From NCBI GenBank assembly GCA_017437905.1, contig JAFRWY010000024.1, forward strand, positions 1-42,824: a stretch of DNA of 42,824 nucleotides, in the 5' to 3' direction. The DNA is from Eubacterium sp. Its GTDB lineage: Bacteria > Bacillota > Clostridia > Lachnospirales > Lachnospiraceae. The notes beneath the pieces were generated by a model, which searched no databases, had not been told where the DNA came from, and saw only the letters and a list, made by a program, of their open reading frames with translations. This document shows, piece by piece, positions 24,019 to 33,185 of the stretch; position 1 is the stretch's first letter; each line of letters opens with the position of its first letter. The position numbers and the translations under genes were made by a program.

Positions 24019-25068
24019 CTACCTGGCTCCAATGGGAAGACCCGGTACCGCATTCAATGACAGATCATCCCGGATCCCCCTCCTGTAATCGATATACCCG
24101 GCGGCGCCTATCATGGCGCCGTTGTCTGTACAGAAGATAAATGACGGGCAGACGAAACCGATCCCTTCTGCGGCAGCACGCTCCTGCATGGCTGTCCGAA
24201 GACCCGTATTTGCCGCCACACCACCGGCCAGAGCCAGGGTATTTACTCCATAGTCCTTCGCCGCTTTCACGGAACGTTCCGACAGCACATCGATCACTGC
24301 CTGCTGGAAGGACGCAGCCACATCCGCCTTGTTATAGGGGATATGCTTCATTTCACAACCGTTCAGATAGTTCAGCACCGCAGATTTAAGACCACTGAAG
24401 GAGAAGTCATAGGGTGCTCCCTCGATCACGGCCCGCGGGAACTCGATGGCATGGGGATCTCCCTCCCTCGCCAGCTTATCCACCTTCGGTCCGCCGGGAT
24501 ACCCCAGCCAAATGGCCCGTGCCACCTTGTCGAAGGCCTCTCCCGCTGCATCATCATGGGTCTGTCCGATGATCTCGTAAACTCCGTAATCCTTCACCAG
24601 AACAATATGCGAATGTCCGCCGGAGGCCACCAGGCACATAAACGGCGGTTCCAGCTCCGGATGCTCGATAAGGTTGGCGGAGATGTGTCCCTCGATATGA
24701 TGGACACCCACCAGCGGGATCTGCTTCGCATAGGCGATGGCCTTCGCTGCGCCGACGCCCACAAGAAGCGGCCCCACCAGACCCGGTCCGTAGGTTACGG
24801 CAATGGCATCCAGGTCTTCCCAGCTGCATTCCGCATCCGCCATGGCCTTCCGGATCACCTGATTCACTTTTTCGATATGCTTCCTGGATGCGATCTCCGG
24901 CACAACGCCGCCGTACAGCGTGTGGAGCGGAACCTGGGAGAAGATCACATTTGACCGGACCTCTCTTCCGTTCACCACCACCGCTGCCGCCGTCTCGTCG
25001 CACGAGGACTCAATGCCCAGGATCGTGACATCCTTACTTTCCTTTTTCGTTGCTGTATCGGTGCTCAT
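24019..25068 (-). CDS. tsaD: tRNA N6-adenosine threonylcarbamoyltransferase TsaD
   Basis: Transfers threonylcarbamoyl from threonylcarbamoyl-AMP to A37 of ANN-decoding tRNAs, acting with TsaB and TsaE. 349 residues. ASKHA/Kae1 fold: [15 protein letters not shown] at the N-terminus, the metal-binding HHIEGH at 123-128, GGHSH, and the C-terminal [13 protein letters not shown] plus [16 protein letters not shown] lies 6 bases before the ATG. It follows the unknown 116-residue gene and rnz rather than tsaB-rimI, which sits 2.7 kb upstream. Confidence 0.97.
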
Positions 25069-25137: not shown

Positions 25138-25491
25138 TTACCACTTATCATTATCGCCTTTCACCTTCTCCAGTGTCAGATCCCCTGCCGCCGTTGCCTT
25201 CTCCTTAACGAACTGTATCAGTGCCGTTACGTTGATCAGGCTCAGTTCATTGACGATCCGCTCGATGGTGGTTTCCCCTTCATTGATCTCGAACTGCTTC
25301 ACCAGCTCATACCGAAGCTGCCACTCCGTTAACTTCTCGTAATTCACCATGATATCCGCCGGCGTCGTATCGTCGGCATAGTAGATCACAAGCGCCGCAA
25401 GATCCTTCATGATGAAGGTTCTGTCGAGTCCGAAATCATTAAAGAAAATGTGTCTCAGCGCGCAGCTGAGTGCAAATCTGGTTCTGGCCAT
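25138..25491 (-). CDS. Conserved-looking small protein of unknown function between rnz and tsaD
   Basis: 117 residues from the ATG at 25491 (MARTRFALSCALRHIFFNDF). It is mixed alpha-helical and acidic with no transmembrane segment; features include RTFIMKDLAALVIYYADDT and the C-terminal LTLEKVKGDNDKW. I do not recognise a family. The start was chosen for its GAGGAGG site 5 bases upstream. An ATG at 25560, four bases after the rnz stop, would add 23 residues and also has a purine-rich stretch ahead. Its place between rnz and tsaD suggests cotranscription with RNA-processing genes. Confidence 0.7.
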   Translation of the reverse strand: MARTRFALSCALRHIFFNDFGLDRTFIMKDLAALVIYYADDTTPADIMVNYEKLTEWQLRYELVKQFEINEGETTIERIVNELSLINVTALIQFVKEKATAAGDLTLEKVKGDNDKW

Positions 25492-25563
25492 AGTATCCTC
25501 CTCTTCTTCGATCTGCCTTACTCCTTCCGGTGCAGCATCAACTGCTCTGTTCATTAACATTTT

Positions 25564-27728: not shown

Positions 27729-29261
27729 TTATGATTCCGTGTCCCTCTTCATGATCACCGCATCCTCCTCCGGATCGCGGTAGTAATTCTTCCTGCGGTC
27801 GAGCTCCCGGAACTCACACGCGGTATAAAGAGCGATGGCCGCTGCGTTCCCGGCACGAACCTCAAGGAAAATGCTCTTAGGTTCCGCCTCTAACATACCT
27901 TCCGCAGAATCCGGATCCTGACGCTTCCCGGTCGAAGACACCGGAGTGTTCTTATTCCCTGTCCTGCGCAGAAGCTCCGCCATCAGCTGCTTCCCAAGTC
28001 CATGTCTCCGGAACTCCGGAAGCACCGCGATCCTGTGCAGCTCCGTCTCATCGGAGGGATCCGCGAAGATAAGATACCCGGCAGTCTTCTGCTCCTCTTC
28101 CCCGACCACAAAGGAATCCGCCACATCCTCTTCGGATACCAGCGGACGGATCTCACCTTCCGTGGAAATGAGCAGGATATGATTGTAGGGATACCGGATG
28201 CTGTCCGTCAGAGTCTCCAGGGACCATGCATCGGAGAACATCTCTTTCTCCATGGCGGCCACATCTGCCAGATCCTGCGCCTGCCGGGCTTTGGCTGCTG
28301 CCTCATGCTCCCGCTCCGCCTGGGATTTCCGGAGGTAGATGGGTTTGAAATCATCTGCGGATACCATGTGCCGTACACCGGCAGAGTTCCTTCCGGCTGC
28401 AGTTTCCCGAACTGCTGTATCTCCCGCTTCCGTTGCAGAGGAACCCTCTCCTGACGACCGGCCCTCTGTATCCGCTTTTGCATAGTACTCTCCGAGTGCC
28501 GCAACCGATGCTGCCCGCTGCAATGCGCTCTGCGGGGGTGCAAAGGCGTATGGTACCCTGCAGGTTTCTTCGATGGTCTTACGGAAGACGGGCACTCCGT
28601 CTCCCAGAAAGGTAACCGGCTCGCCATAGGAAGCCAGTTTCTCCAGCAGTTCCTCGATCGAAAAAGCCATCTGGTCCTCAACGACGGTGACCGGTGAACC
28701 TGTCATTTTAAGAATGCTGTCCGAAGAATCTTCCGACGGAGTGACAGGATCCTTCGCCTCACTGCTCAGGATGACAGGTTGTCCGTCTTCCTGAGGACTC
28801 TGTCCGAGGGATCTCCCGGCCATACCACCAACCCGGTAGATTCCCGTATAAACCTGCCCGCGCCTCGCATCCATGATCGGAACCACCAGACCCGGAAAGC
28901 CTGTATCCGTCTCCGTCCCGGTTCCTGCCGGAGCAAAGTAACAGCCGCTGCTGAGATTATAAGCCAGCCCCTCACAGGTGGGTATTGCGATCACCGGCTT
29001 CTCCAGCGCAAGCCCCAGCCCCTTCACCGTTGCGGCACCGATCCTGAGTCCCGTAAAGCTGCCCGGTCCCGCTGCCACGGCAACGGCATCAATCTCAGTA
29101 AGCTCAATGCCCGCATCCCGCACGATCTGATCCAGCATGGGAAGCAGCGTCTGGGAATGCGTCTTCTTATGGTTCATGGTATATTCCGCAACAAGAACTC
29201 CGTCCGCCACGTAAGCGACCGAAGCCACATTTCCGGAACTGTCCATACCGATTATCTTCAT
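27729..29261 (-). CDS. tsaB-rimI: TsaB-RimI fusion (t6A synthesis protein and N-acetyltransferase)
   Basis: 510 residues. Residues 1-~310 are TsaB: MKIIGMDSSG, AAGPGSFTGLRIGA (63-76), PIMDARRGQVYTGIY, FLGDGVPVF. TsaB is the scaffold partner of TsaD in making t6A37 tRNA. Residues ~325-510 are a GNAT domain of the RimI type (HRIAVLPEFRRHGLGKQLM at 409-427, then VRAGNAAAIALY), expected to acetylate ribosomal protein S18. The TsaB part carries an in-frame insertion (161-189) that is a copy of a dispersed palindromic DNA element, plus a Ser/Gly/Glu-rich linker (about 262-297). A shorter insert sits in the GNAT domain (436-462). The start at 29261 has AGGAG 8 bases upstream; a longer frame to 29351 includes the promoter. 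Confidence 0.92.
   Translation of the reverse strand: MKIIGMDSSGNVASVAYVADGVLVAEYTMNHKKTHSQTLLPMLDQIVRDAGIELTEIDAVAVAAGPGSFTGLRIGAATVKGLGLALEKPVIAIPTCEGLAYNLSSGCYFAPAGTGTETDTGFPGLVVPIMDARRGQVYTGIYRVGGMAGRSLGQSPQEDGQPVILSSEAKDPVTPSEDSSDSILKMTGSPVTVVEDQMAFSIEELLEKLASYGEPVTFLGDGVPVFRKTIEETCRVPYAFAPPQSALQRAASVAALGEYYAKADTEGRSSGEGSSATEAGDTAVRETAAGRNSAGVRHMVSADDFKPIYLRKSQAEREHEAAAKARQAQDLADVAAMEKEMFSDAWSLETLTDSIRYPYNHILLISTEGEIRPLVSEEDVADSFVVGEEEQKTAGYLIFADPSDETELHRIAVLPEFRRHGLGKQLMAELLRRTGNKNTPVSSTGKRQDPDSAEGMLEAEPKSIFLEVRAGNAAAIALYTACEFRELDRRKNYYRDPEEDAVIMKRDTES
28697..28780. repeat. 84-bp palindromic element inserted in frame in tsaB
   Basis: The terminal inverted repeats AACCTGTCAT (28697-28706) and ATGACAGGTT (28771-28780) are perfect. 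The interior has CGAAGAATCTTCC and GGATCCTTCGCCTCACTG, matching the dispersed intergenic family in this window. The length of 84 bp is 28 codons and the frame is open, encoding PVILSSEAKDPV and a Ser/Asp-rich stretch that interrupt the normal TsaB sequence in a likely surface loop. Confidence 0.85.
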
Positions 29262-29375: not shown

Positions 29376-30014
29376 TTACTTGATTTTCCGGACTTCCTCC
29401 GCCAGCGCCTCTGCCAGAGCTATATGGCTTTCCGGCGTGAAATGCAGGGAATCCTCTTCTGAAGCCTTGACATACTCCGCTGCATTTACGAATCTGCAGC
29501 CATAGGTCTCGGCTACCTGCCGGTACAACTTCGGGAATTCCCTGGAACGTCCCACGGGATCCTCGCTGAAGCTTTCGGAGAAAGGAGAGTTCGTGATTCC
29601 CTCACCCACCTCGGCGGGGGATATCAGTATTATCTCAGGTACCTTCTCCTGCTTCTCCTTCGTGAATTCCTGAATGATCTTCACCAACTCGGCTACACCG
29701 TTTGCGATATCCTGCGCGGATGCATGGAATACATCCTTCAGATCATTGCTTCCCAGCATCAGGATAAAGATATCCACCGGCTTATGGGAATTAAGGCATG
29801 GCCTGAGATACTCCTTCCCCGTCTTCCAGCCCTCCACGGGATCCTCGAAAACGGAGGTTCTGCCGTTACATCCCTCTTCGATCACGCGGTATCCGTCTCC
29901 CAGCAGCATCTGGAGTCTTCCGGTCCAGCGGATATCCGACGGATAACGAAGTCCGTTGGACGGGTTGTAACCGTATGTATTTGAATCTCCGTAACAAAGT
30001 ACTGTCTTCTGCAT
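29376..30014 (-). CDS. SGNH/GDSL hydrolase (arylesterase-like)
   Basis: 212 residues, no signal peptide. SGNH blocks: CYGDSNTYGYNP (block I Ser), the Asn/Gly region EEGCNGRTSVFEDP (block II Gly), MLGSNDLKDVF (block III Asn), and the C-terminal DSLHFTPESH with the catalytic Asp and His. The extended GYNPSNGLRYPSDIRWTGRL is typical of the arylesterase/acyl-CoA thioesterase-like subgroup that deacylates small esters or sugars. The true substrate is unknown. The Shine-Dalgarno is weak. It follows the PPOX-fold gene in the same direction. Confidence 0.9.
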   Translation of the reverse strand: MQKTVLCYGDSNTYGYNPSNGLRYPSDIRWTGRLQMLLGDGYRVIEEGCNGRTSVFEDPVEGWKTGKEYLRPCLNSHKPVDIFILMLGSNDLKDVFHASAQDIANGVAELVKIIQEFTKEKQEKVPEIILISPAEVGEGITNSPFSESFSEDPVGRSREFPKLYRQVAETYGCRFVNAAEYVKASEEDSLHFTPESHIALAEALAEEVRKIK

Positions 30015-30093
30015 AATTCTGTCATCCGTTTTCAGTCTGATTCATCATATGATCTCTGCCCTTTTCCCGGGATCCTGCAGACACTTCGCGTCT

Positions 30094-30486
30094 TCAGAAT
30101 GTCACAAGCTCCGGAGGTGCCGTAAAGGAACAGAAGGTTGCGGTTGCATCCTCAAAAAAGTACACAACGGTATTTCCGTCATCCGGGTCATACATTGCCT
30201 TCAGATCCGGATATGCATCCAGCATGGATACCCTTGCCTCGCGGCGGTCATCCTCCACCAGCTTACCGGCCAGGCGGATCCATGTTCCGTCCTTAAATGC
30301 GCTGATCTCCACCTTCGGATTTGCGGCGATCTGCTTTGCCACATTCTTCACCTTTCCGGTCTGGATGTAGAGTTTTCCTTCGAAAACATTCACCGTACCG
30401 AAGGGACGAACCCGCGGCTGGTCTCCGTCAACGGTTGCCAGGAAATACGTTCCCGCTTCCTTCAGAAACTTTGCTACCTTTTCCAT
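30094..30486 (-). CDS. Pyridoxamine 5'-phosphate oxidase-fold flavin protein
   Basis: 130 residues of the split-barrel flavin-binding family: EAGTYFLATVDGDQPRVRPF, then GKLYIQTGKVKNVAKQI, NPKVEISAF and WIRLAGKL. Members bind FMN or F420-like cofactors and act as small reductases; many are annotated only as general stress or putative oxidases. It is too short to be true PdxH. GGAGG stands 7 bases before the ATG. Confidence 0.88.
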   Translation of the reverse strand: MEKVAKFLKEAGTYFLATVDGDQPRVRPFGTVNVFEGKLYIQTGKVKNVAKQIAANPKVEISAFKDGTWIRLAGKLVEDDRREARVSMLDAYPDLKAMYDPDDGNTVVYFFEDATATFCSFTAPPELVTF

Positions 30487-30556
30487 GTTGATACCTCCTC
30501 ATCGTTTTATTCTTCGTGTCACGTGCGACCGACATTCCGTTCTCGGCACGTGAATC

Positions 30557-30680
30557 ATCATCCTGCACCATCCCAACATGTATGACCGGACTGCCATATC
30601 ATCCATAACACGCACCGCGTCACTCCTCTGCCATCCCGGTATATGTACCGGACTGCCGTATCATCCACAGCACGCTCCGG
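30557..30680. repeat. Two diverged copies of a 62-bp tandem repeat
   Basis: ACCGGACTGCC begins at 30585 and again at 30647. The surrounding CCATCCC...ATGTA...ATATCATCCATAACACGC pattern aligns over about 62 bp. It fills most of the 234-base gap between the aldo/keto reductase and the PPOX-fold gene. Confidence 0.7.
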
Positions 30681-30710
30681 ATCCTTCGCACTCCGGGCTC
30701 GGGATGACAG
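30679..30710. repeat. Dispersed palindromic repeat, half copy
   Basis: GGATCCTTCGCACTCCGG followed by GCTCGGGATGACAG matches the right arm of the family seen in tsaB and at 38829-38922. It ends just before the aldo/keto reductase stop codon. Confidence 0.65.
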
Positions 30711-30720
30711 GCTGTTCATA

Positions 30721-31917
30721 TTACTGCTTCCGCATGCGCCGGCCGAACATATATTTCCGCGCCACCGCGATCCCTGCCTTGTAGGGTAACGGACGAAGCG
30801 CCTTGTCTGCTTCCTTCAGCTTCTCGCGGATCGGAAGTCCCTGGGGACAGTGCAGCTCGCATTTTCCGCATTCGATGCACTGGCTCGGGAAGGCCGGCTC
30901 CTCGGTAAGGCCCACGGCCTGGGCGTATTGGAACCGTCCCGCATTCTTACCCTCGATGGCCATCATATTGTAGCAGTAGAAGGTGCCCGGGATGTCCACG
31001 CCCTTCGGACAGGGCATGCAGTACCGGCAGCCGGTGCAGCCCACCTTCTCATTGCGGCGGATCTCCCGTTTCACCACTTCGATCAATTTATTATCATGCT
31101 TCGTAAAATGTCCCGCTTCGGCCTCGTCTGCCACCCGGCAGTTCTCGCGGACCATTTCCACGGAATTCATACCGGAAAGGACACAGGTCACCTCCGGCTG
31201 GTTGTAGAGCCAGCGGAAGGCCAGCTCCGCCGGAGACCAGCCGTGGCCGTATTTTTCGATGGCCCGCTTCGCCCGAGAAGGCAGCAGGTTCACCAGCTTA
31301 CCGCCCCGCAGCGGTTCCATGATGACCACCGGAATCCCCTTTGCCGCTGCCGCTTTCAGCCCCCTCACTCCGGCCTGGGACACATCATCCAGGTAATTGT
31401 ACTGGATCTGGCAGAAATCCCAGTCGTAATCCTCCAGGATCTTCAGGAAATTCTCCGTATTTCCGTGGTACGAGAAGCCGATGTTCCGGATCTCCCCGGA
31501 AGCCTTCTTCTCGGCGATCCATTTCAGGATCCCCACGGATTTCAGCTTCTCCCACATGGCCACGTCGGTCAGATGGTGCATCAGATAGTAATCCACATAA
31601 GTGGTCCTGAGCCGGGACAATTCCTCGGTGAAATATTTGTCCAGCGCCTCCCGGTTCCGGATCAGGTACTGCGGCAGCTTCGTCGCAATATTTACCTTCT
31701 CCCGCAAATGATGCTTCTCCAGGATCTGCCCCAGGGCATCCTCGCTTCCCGGATAAATGTAAGCCGTGTCATAGTAGTTCACTCCGGCCTTGTAGGCTGT
31801 CAGGATCTCCCGCTCCGCCTTCCGAAGGTCGATCTTCGTCCCCTTCTTGGTAAACCGCATGCATCCGTAGCCGAGGAGCGATATCTTCTCCCCATGTTTA
31901 TCGGTTCTGTACTGCAT
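30721..31917 (-). CDS. Aldo/keto reductase with C-terminal 2x[4Fe-4S] ferredoxin domain
   Basis: 398 residues. The N-terminal TIM barrel (about 1-280) carries the AKR tetrad: Asp and Tyr in NYYDTAYIYP, Lys in IATKLP, His in YYLMHHL. The C-terminal domain has two cysteine clusters, CTGCRYCMPCP and CIECGKCELHCP, ligating two [4Fe-4S] clusters. This architecture is common in anaerobic Clostridia, where electrons may come from ferredoxin as well as NAD(P)H. The substrate is unknown. GGAGG lies upstream, and the gene begins 22 bases after the alpha/beta hydrolase. Confidence 0.94.
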   Translation of the reverse strand: MQYRTDKHGEKISLLGYGCMRFTKKGTKIDLRKAEREILTAYKAGVNYYDTAYIYPGSEDALGQILEKHHLREKVNIATKLPQYLIRNREALDKYFTEELSRLRTTYVDYYLMHHLTDVAMWEKLKSVGILKWIAEKKASGEIRNIGFSYHGNTENFLKILEDYDWDFCQIQYNYLDDVSQAGVRGLKAAAAKGIPVVIMEPLRGGKLVNLLPSRAKRAIEKYGHGWSPAELAFRWLYNQPEVTCVLSGMNSVEMVRENCRVADEAEAGHFTKHDNKLIEVVKREIRRNEKVGCTGCRYCMPCPKGVDIPGTFYCYNMMAIEGKNAGRFQYAQAVGLTEEPAFPSQCIECGKCELHCPQGLPIREKLKEADKALRPLPYKAGIAVARKYMFGRRMRKQ

Positions 31918-31939
31918 CCCTTCTCCTCCCGGGTTCCCC

Positions 31940-32719
31940 CTAATGCAAGAACGTGGCGGCTATAAAGTCCACCGTCTGCCGTTGCTGTTCCTCTGCAGAA
32001 ATGGTCGCTTCTCCGTCCCCTTTCTGAACCCCGTAGTTCCCGAACTGTGCGTGATTTCCACCCGCGATGCATAATTCCTTACAGTTTTCCGCCAGTTTTT
32101 TTCCTTCCTCCAGTTTCTCCTTCCGGACCACCTGATCCTCCGATCCGTAGATCATAAGTACCGGAACATCCTTCCCGATGGGTTTCGTGGAATAGGCTCC
32201 CAGCAGCACAAGTCCGCGGAAATCCGCCTCATGCTTCGCCACATAAAATGCCGCAAATGCGCCGCCCATGGAGTGTCCTCCGATGTACCAGTTGCTGTAG
32301 TTATACTCCTTCATCACGTCCTCAGCCCGTCCGCTTCCGAAGACCGCCAGTCGAAAGGGCATCTTCACAAGGCAGACATCCATTCCCCGCTCCGCCAGAA
32401 GGTGAAGCAAGGGCGCATAGGCTGTTTCCTCAACTCTTCCCCCCGGGTAGAAGACCAGCGCATCCTTCTCCGACGGACCGTCGAAATACCAGCCGTAATC
32501 CGTCTCCTCCACCCGGACCGATGCGTCCGAATTCAGTGCCTGCAGCGCCGAAGGATCCGCATGATAATAGGTGAGAAGATAGATCAACATAGCGCCGGTC
32601 AGGATAAGGAGCACTGCGGCAACGGAAATGAGGATCCATTTCTTTTTTCCGCGCTTTTTCTTTTCCTTTTTTTTCACCGGTTCCTGCTCCGGGCCCCGGT
32701 CAAATTCCTCTTCCTGCAT
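31940..32719 (-). CDS. Membrane-anchored alpha/beta hydrolase
   Basis: 259 residues. A Lys-rich cytoplasmic N-terminus (KKKEKKKRGKKK) and one transmembrane helix (28-50) precede an alpha/beta hydrolase domain with nucleophile Ser150 in GGHSMGG, acid Asp195 in IYGSEDQV and His223 in GGNHAQFGNYG. The triad is complete, so it should be an active esterase or lipase-like enzyme facing outward. The related family is the alpha/beta hydrolase 5 type. GGAGG is 5 bases before the ATG. It follows tsaE by 27 bases. Confidence 0.9.
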   Translation of the reverse strand: MQEEEFDRGPEQEPVKKKEKKKRGKKKWILISVAAVLLILTGAMLIYLLTYYHADPSALQALNSDASVRVEETDYGWYFDGPSEKDALVFYPGGRVEETAYAPLLHLLAERGMDVCLVKMPFRLAVFGSGRAEDVMKEYNYSNWYIGGHSMGGAFAAFYVAKHEADFRGLVLLGAYSTKPIGKDVPVLMIYGSEDQVVRKEKLEEGKKLAENCKELCIAGGNHAQFGNYGVQKGDGEATISAEEQQRQTVDFIAATFLH

Positions 32720-32746: not shown

Positions 32747-33185
32747 TCACTCGTTTTCCACCAGGATCCTCCGGTAGTTAAAGCCCTTCTCCGGCTCCTT
32801 CACTATGGTGATGCGCACCGCATCCTCCGGAAGGATCCCTTCGATCAGCTTCGACCACTCGATGAGGCAGACCGCATCCGGCCGGCCGGTCACATCGTAG
32901 AATCCGACCTCCTCCATCTCATCCTCGGAGCCGATCCGGTAAACATCAAAATGATACAGGGACAGTCTCCCGGCCTGATATTCCTTCAGTATGGTAAATG
33001 TGGGGCTGGCCATGGGTTCCGTGATCCCGAGGCCTGCGCCGAAGCCCTGGGCGAAGACGGTCTTTCCGACCCCCCAGATCCCCGTCCAGACAGAACACCT
33101 CACCGCCCTTTGCCTGTTCCGCCAGCTGCTTTGCAAAGGCGTGGGTCTCCTCCGCACTCCAAGTTTCTATCTCCTGACTCTTCAT
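32747..33185 (-). pseudogene. tsaE: tsaE, t6A synthesis ATPase, frameshifted at the P-loop
   Basis: TsaE is the ATPase that activates the TsaBD complex. From the ATG at 33185 (GAGG 6 bases upstream) the frame reads MKSQEIETWSAEETHAFAKQ to CLDGDLGG, then leaves the family. The other frame continues with VGKTVFAQGFGAGLG, SPTFTILKEY, HFDVYRIG and IEWSKLIEG, all TsaE motifs, to the stop at 32747. The switch lies in a run of six C (33070-33075, G6 on the coding strand). Removing one G gives an intact protein of about 145 residues with P-loop GDLGVGKT. tsaE is usually essential, so a sequencing error in the homopolymer, a recent mutation or a recoding site are the options. Confidence 0.88.

What the first reader, a model, noticed from the sequence alone, without database searches (positions are those of the whole stretch)
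32747..33185. tsaE, normally essential, is frameshifted at a G6 run inside its P-loop
Seen: motifs before the P-loop lie in one frame and all later TsaE motifs in another. The switch is at six consecutive G on the coding strand (33070-33075), where five would give GDLGVGKT. Known: TsaE is required with TsaB and TsaD for t6A and is essential in most bacteria tested. TsaB and TsaD are otherwise complete here, so outright loss would be surprising. Options are a base-calling error in the homopolymer, slippage-based phase variation, transcriptional slippage or programmed frameshifting, or a second copy elsewhere.
Basis: partly seen in the sequence, partly recalled or inferred. Interest (0 to 1): 0.72.

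Follow-up and report, generated by a model that had tools for sequence, protein, structure and literature searches.

The report
One-genome frameshift in tsaE gene
A tRNA-modification gene in one draft bacterial genome carries a reading-frame break that was not seen in the relatives examined, so it is most likely a base-count error or a very recent mutation and not a special decoding mechanism.

Summary
On the minus strand, tsaE (32747-33185) changes frame at six G (33070-33075): the piece before matches TsaE profile 3-31, the piece after 31-123. No second copy was found in the assembly.

The break looks private. In 80 named relative loci the motif is in one frame and holds at most five G. Of 250 same-family genomes 243 have TsaE, this one scoring weakest. 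Against the nearest relative both halves differ mainly synonymously in their original frames (11:1 before, 14:8 after), so the gene was selected as one TsaE until very recently.

Programmed frameshifting or phase variation has no support: no conserved run, no unusual downstream fold. Yet the assembly is not riddled with breaks: tsaE is the only one over 100,707 compared bases, which speaks mildly against plain error.

Best reading: base-count error, otherwise a recent private indel; only reads decide. "Normally essential" needs qualifying: B. subtilis tsaE is reported non-essential (PMC6504816, passages).

The parts
32747..33185 (-). tsaE locus, split between two reading frames
33069..33185 (-). 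upstream piece (39 codons from ATG 33185), TsaE profile 3-31
   Evidence: 11 synonymous and 1 nonsynonymous codon differences over the last 29 codons compared with L063
33070..33075 (-). run of six G on the coding strand where the frame changes, inside the P-loop codons
32747..33073 (-). downstream piece with P-loop GKT and the later TsaE motifs, TsaE profile 31-123
   Evidence: 14 synonymous and 8 nonsynonymous codon differences over 100 codons compared with L063
32747..33103 (-). possible restart ORF in the downstream frame from GTG 33103 (118 aa by its coordinates), keeping the pattern GIWGVGKT; speculative
   Evidence: the Walker A consensus is recalled
27732..29258 (-). open frame with a PF00814 domain followed by a GNAT acetyltransferase domain; labelled TsaB-RimI by me
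   Evidence: the TsaB and RimI labels are recalled, Pfam names the first domain TsaD
24022..25065 (-). TsaD, open, PF00814 profile 1-263 of 264

Best explanation
tsaE in the living organism is probably an ordinary full-length gene, and the frame offset at the G6 run is a base-count error in this draft assembly. Most relatives have another base interrupting the run; here the run is longer, which is the kind of place where a count goes wrong. Shown: the frame break, its absence in the relatives examined, conservation of both halves in their original frames, no second copy found. Inferred: that the change lies in the assembled sequence and not in the cell.
For: The break is a singleton: in 78 of 80 named loci the motif codons lie in one frame with at most five G in a row, and the other 2 are open through GNLGVGKT; 242 of 249 other same-family genomes have TsaE, each with a better E-value than this one. 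Compared with the nearest relative (89% DNA identity) the pieces differ by 11 synonymous and 1 nonsynonymous codons before the run and 14 and 8 after it. No second copy, while TsaC, TsaD and the TsaB-like gene are open. MutS and MutL have open frames of 947 and 734 aa, so no sign of a mutator strain. The authors of a survey of 1106 genomes expect homology-validated singleton frameshifts to be sequencing errors rather than genuine indels (PMC3711429, passages).
Against: The assembly shows few frame breaks elsewhere: tsaE is the only one among 108 matched G002 proteins over 100,707 bases. Of 17 other G/C runs of 6 or more that could be assessed in coding sequence, 16 keep frame, 1 is unclear and none breaks it, so G6 runs are not systematically miscounted. 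None besides tsaE in 100 kb still allows roughly 3 breaks per 100 kb (95% bound, my arithmetic). Of the 9 nonsynonymous codon differences from L063, 6 are on the G000 side and 3 on the L063 side, which is too few to show or exclude slight relaxation. No reads were available, and the sequencing method of this genome is unknown to me.
Confidence: 0.55

Rival explanations
1. A real, very recent one-base indel in the sequenced strain or population has inactivated tsaE, and the cell tolerates it, as B. subtilis is reported to tolerate tsaE loss.
For: Low background of frame breaks in the part of the assembly compared and other G6 runs in frame; tsaE reported non-essential in B. subtilis (PMC6504816, passages); TsaE absent from a Mollicutes subgroup while TsaC and TsaD are kept (PMC4014445, passages).
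Against: 243 of 250 same-family genomes keep TsaE and the 7 without a match are 90-95% complete; neither half shows clear decay, so the loss would have been caught almost as it happened.
Confidence: 0.33
2. The indel is real, and some TsaE activity survives by accident: leaky +1 slippage of the ribosome or slippage of RNA polymerase on the G run, or a restart at GTG 33103 that gives a 118-aa product with a Walker A pattern.
For: The codons CTG GGG GGT would let a tRNA re-pair after a one-base slip (read); GTG 33103 has AAAGGG upstream; [quoted passage not shown]
Against: The 80 nt after the run fold no better than shuffles (z 0.21, 116 of 200 at least as stable); the run is not conserved; the upstream half was kept in its original frame, so a restart product is not an established protein.
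Confidence: 0.08
3. Evolved programmed frameshifting or transcriptional slippage, or slippage-based phase variation, controls TsaE.
For: Only the presence of a short homopolymer at the break.
Against: Singleton; relatives have runs of 2-5 in the motif and one frame across it; the run is shorter than the 7-nt minimum used to report homopolymer repeats in PMC3711429 (passages); no unusual structure.
Confidence: 0.03
4. A second intact tsaE elsewhere in the genome makes this copy a spare.
For: None found.
Against: Profile search of the 3.09-Mb assembly gives this locus plus one weak hit of 21.9 bits, in a 336-aa ORF that reads as RuvB by eye; DNA searches with the two pieces find only this place, apart from one 47-base match at 79% identity.
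Confidence: 0.01

Closest known systems
TsaE (YjeE/YdiB), P-loop ATPase of the bacterial TsaD-TsaB-TsaE t6A complex
   Same: Both pieces match the TsaE profile in consecutive order, and the locus lies on one contig with tsaD and a TsaB-like gene.
   Different: The reading frame is broken inside the P-loop; the break was not seen in the relatives examined.
Homology-validated singleton frameshift genes of the GeneTack survey (PMC3711429, passages)
   Same: One genome, no homologues with the same break among those examined, both sides matching one family.
   Different: Nothing seen that sets it apart, except that the family is usually retained.
Programmed +1 frameshift or slippage genes (prfB and dnaX, recalled as examples)
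   Same: A homopolymer at the frame change.
   Different: Site not conserved in relatives and no significant structure after it.

Membership tests
TsaE (PF02367) | Profile match above the gathering score | tested here: met
   Downstream piece 101.8 bits against 26.6; whole-genome hit 104.2 bits
TsaE (PF02367) | Single continuous reading frame covering the profile | tested here: not met
   Upstream piece 3-31 and downstream piece 31-123 lie in different frames
TsaE (PF02367) | Function in t6A synthesis | not testable with these tools
   Needs the strain, tRNA mass spectrometry or complementation
Programmed frameshifting or transcriptional slippage | Frame change conserved at the same site in relatives | tested here: not met
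   0 of 80 named loci show it across the motif; longest G run 5
Programmed frameshifting or transcriptional slippage | Stimulatory structure 3' of the slip site | tested here: not met
   80 nt after the run, z 0.21, 116 of 200 shuffles at least as stable; signals 5' of the run were not tested
Slippage phase variation | Long repeat tract (7 nt or more in PMC3711429) | tested here: not met
   Tract of 6 here, 2-5 in the motif of relatives
Slippage phase variation | Tract length varies between strains of the species | not testable with these tools
Singleton sequencing error or private indel | Break absent in relatives and both halves conserved in the original frames | tested here: met
Singleton sequencing error or private indel | Run length in raw reads | not testable with these tools
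   No reads held

The most novel reading that the evidence does not exclude
The six-G allele is real and fixed in a living strain, and TsaE activity comes from leaky +1 slippage on the G run or from a restarted, N-terminally rewritten TsaE that keeps the Walker A motif, so that the t6A level would depend on slippage or restart efficiency.
Probability: 0.06. Interest if true: 0.5.

Novelty: not a real feature. Interest (0 to 1): 0.14.

Why it matters
If the six G are real, the strain would be a natural test of whether such a cell can live without TsaE or with leaky expression of it. If they are an error, it is an annotation caution: a core gene would be listed as lost in this genome without being lost. 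The evidence leans to the second.

Tried and rejected
Second copy: rejected within this assembly. Mutator strain: MutS and MutL frames are open, so no support. Structure after the run: none of note.

Codon-usage HMM for frame breaks: 6 candidates in 369,003 bases of this genome at the strict setting (tsaE included), against 14 in 1,600,000 bases of G002 and 11 in 1,215,274 bases of the named loci with the same model, which was trained on this genome; with at least 90 nt on both sides the counts are 2, 5 and 1. The rate is thus somewhat higher here than in the controls. Only 71 of 200 simulated one-base deletions were recovered, so this census is weak and I rest on the homology census. Of the other 5 strict candidates I followed only L144:3399: its two sides match different families (PPDK_N and RelA_SpoT), and the second side lies in an open frame of 330 aa in G062; I read it as two neighbouring genes. 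The other 4 strict candidates and the rest of the 19 at the looser setting were not followed. The first training run was contaminated by shadow ORFs and was replaced. The run-by-run frame test also flags 30 shorter or A/T runs (22 A/T, 8 G/C of length 5) as lying between different frames; I take these as gene junctions without checking each. It did not assess the tsaE run, whose upstream coding part is too short.

A first P-loop regex had a wrong spacing and matched only the window; it was corrected. NCBIfam was not searched (one search failed and was not repeated). Structure prediction of the restart product was not run: it would not tell function.

Papers: PMC6504816, PMC4014445, PMC9654439, PMC4330362, PMC3711429, PMC5009743, PMC3386227, PMC8395126, PMC6242692 and PMC11648230 were seen as passages; others only in search listings. 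A search for papers on homopolymer indel errors in MAGs returned 0.

Full report
What is there. The window is contig 90 of a 133-contig draft genome of 3.09 Mb (handle G000). The nearest named relatives are titled uncultured Lachnospiraceae bacterium or Eubacterium sp., several from rumen, led by isolate RUG10588. On the minus strand an ATG at 33185 opens a TsaE-like frame that reaches six G at 33075-33070; the later TsaE motifs lie in another frame, which ends at 32747. Pfam TsaE matches the first piece at profile 3-31 and the second at 31-123.

Is there another tsaE? None was found in this assembly. The profile gives one good match (104.2 bits) and one weak match of 21.9 bits, inside a 336-aa ORF that I read as RuvB by eye. 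The two halves used as DNA queries find only this place, apart from one 47-base match at 79% identity. The other pathway genes are open: TsaD and a PF00814-GNAT protein that I label TsaB-RimI in the window, and a TsaC/Sua5-type gene on contig 76 with no stops inside.

Is the break shared? In 80 named relative loci, the longest G run within the 15 bases read of the motif is 2 in 16, 3 in 55, 4 in 4 and 5 in 3; in these 78 the motif codons lie in one frame by the way the pattern is built, with 20 codons open. The 2 that the pattern missed (L116, L121) are open through GNLGVGKT. Whole-gene integrity was not checked for each of the 80. The nearest relative (89% DNA identity over tsaE; 92% in the downstream protein piece) has a T interrupting the run. 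In 250 same-family genomes at least 90% complete, 243 have TsaE above the cut-off; G000 has the weakest best E-value (1.1e-29; the next weakest is 4.6e-33). The 7 without a match are 90-95% complete. The table of places in that answer was cut, so profile coverage of all 242 others was not seen. Among 41 genomes searched earlier, this one included, 36 are above the cut-off and the 5 others are 58-80% complete.

How old is the break? Compared with L063, the last 29 codons before the run differ by 11 synonymous and 1 nonsynonymous codons (the latter on the G000 side), and 100 codons from GKT on differ by 14 synonymous and 8 nonsynonymous (5 on the G000 side, 3 on the L063 side). The upstream half was kept in its original frame, which speaks against a long-standing protein restarted in the downstream frame, and neither half shows clear decay. 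The break is recent or not real.

Is the assembly full of such breaks? With 1032 predicted proteins from 1.6 Mb of the relative G002 as queries against 369,003 bases of G000 (the window plus a 326,179-base sample), 108 proteins matched at 45% identity or more over 100,707 bases, and tsaE was the only frame break; the reverse comparison (94 proteins) gave 0. Proteins from the 80 named loci (336 with hits, 24,674 bases) gave 28 break calls, all at tsaE. Of other G/C runs of 6 or more that could be assessed in coding sequence, 16 of 17 keep frame and 1 is unclear. This speaks mildly against the error reading but does not exclude a single error. The codon-usage census is weaker (71 of 200 simulated breaks found): 6 strict candidates here in 369 kb, against 14 in 1.6 Mb of G002 and 11 in 1.2 Mb of the named loci, a somewhat higher rate here; of the 6, one is tsaE, one looks like two neighbouring genes and 4 were not followed.

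Programmed or phase-variable? The run is not conserved, the relatives examined lack the break, the 80 nt after the run fold no better than shuffles (z 0.21), and the tract is shorter than the 7-nt minimum for homopolymer repeats in PMC3711429 (passages). The codons CTG GGG GGT would allow re-pairing after a one-base slip, and GTG 33103 could restart a 118-aa product with a Walker A pattern; these are possible accidents, not evolved features.

Would loss be lethal? ygjD, yeaZ and yjeE (tsaE) are called essential and YjeE is required for in vitro t6A synthesis in E. coli (PMC4330362, passages); PMC8395126 (passages) calls TsaB and TsaE essential for bacterial viability. But PMC6504816 (passages) says that two groups reported tsaE non-essential in B. 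subtilis and that tsaB and tsaD could be disrupted there, with a caution about unknown factors, and PMC4014445 (passages) says that TsaE is missing in the Pneumoniae subgroup of Mollicutes. A real loss is therefore possible.

Verdict. A singleton frame break at a homopolymer in a conserved gene found once in the genome, without clear decay. The authors of PMC3711429 expect homology-validated singletons to be sequencing errors (passages). Reads decide.

Noticed in passing
27732-29258: A PF00814 (TsaB-like) domain is fused in frame to a GNAT acetyltransferase domain (RimI label recalled); in the B. subtilis operon tsaB and rimI are neighbouring genes (PMC6504816, passages).
   Followed up: partly
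29376-32719: tsaE is separated from the TsaB-like gene by several open frames, among them an alpha/beta hydrolase (31943-32716), so the B. subtilis tsaE-tsaB-rimI-tsaD order is interrupted here.
   Followed up: no
25141-25551: Predicted open frame of 137 codons next to tsaD with no Pfam match at E 0.001.
   Followed up: no
L144:2611-4196: An open frame with a PPDK_N fragment is followed directly by one with a RelA_SpoT region; the latter is 95% identical in G062 and 63% in G002.
   Followed up: partly
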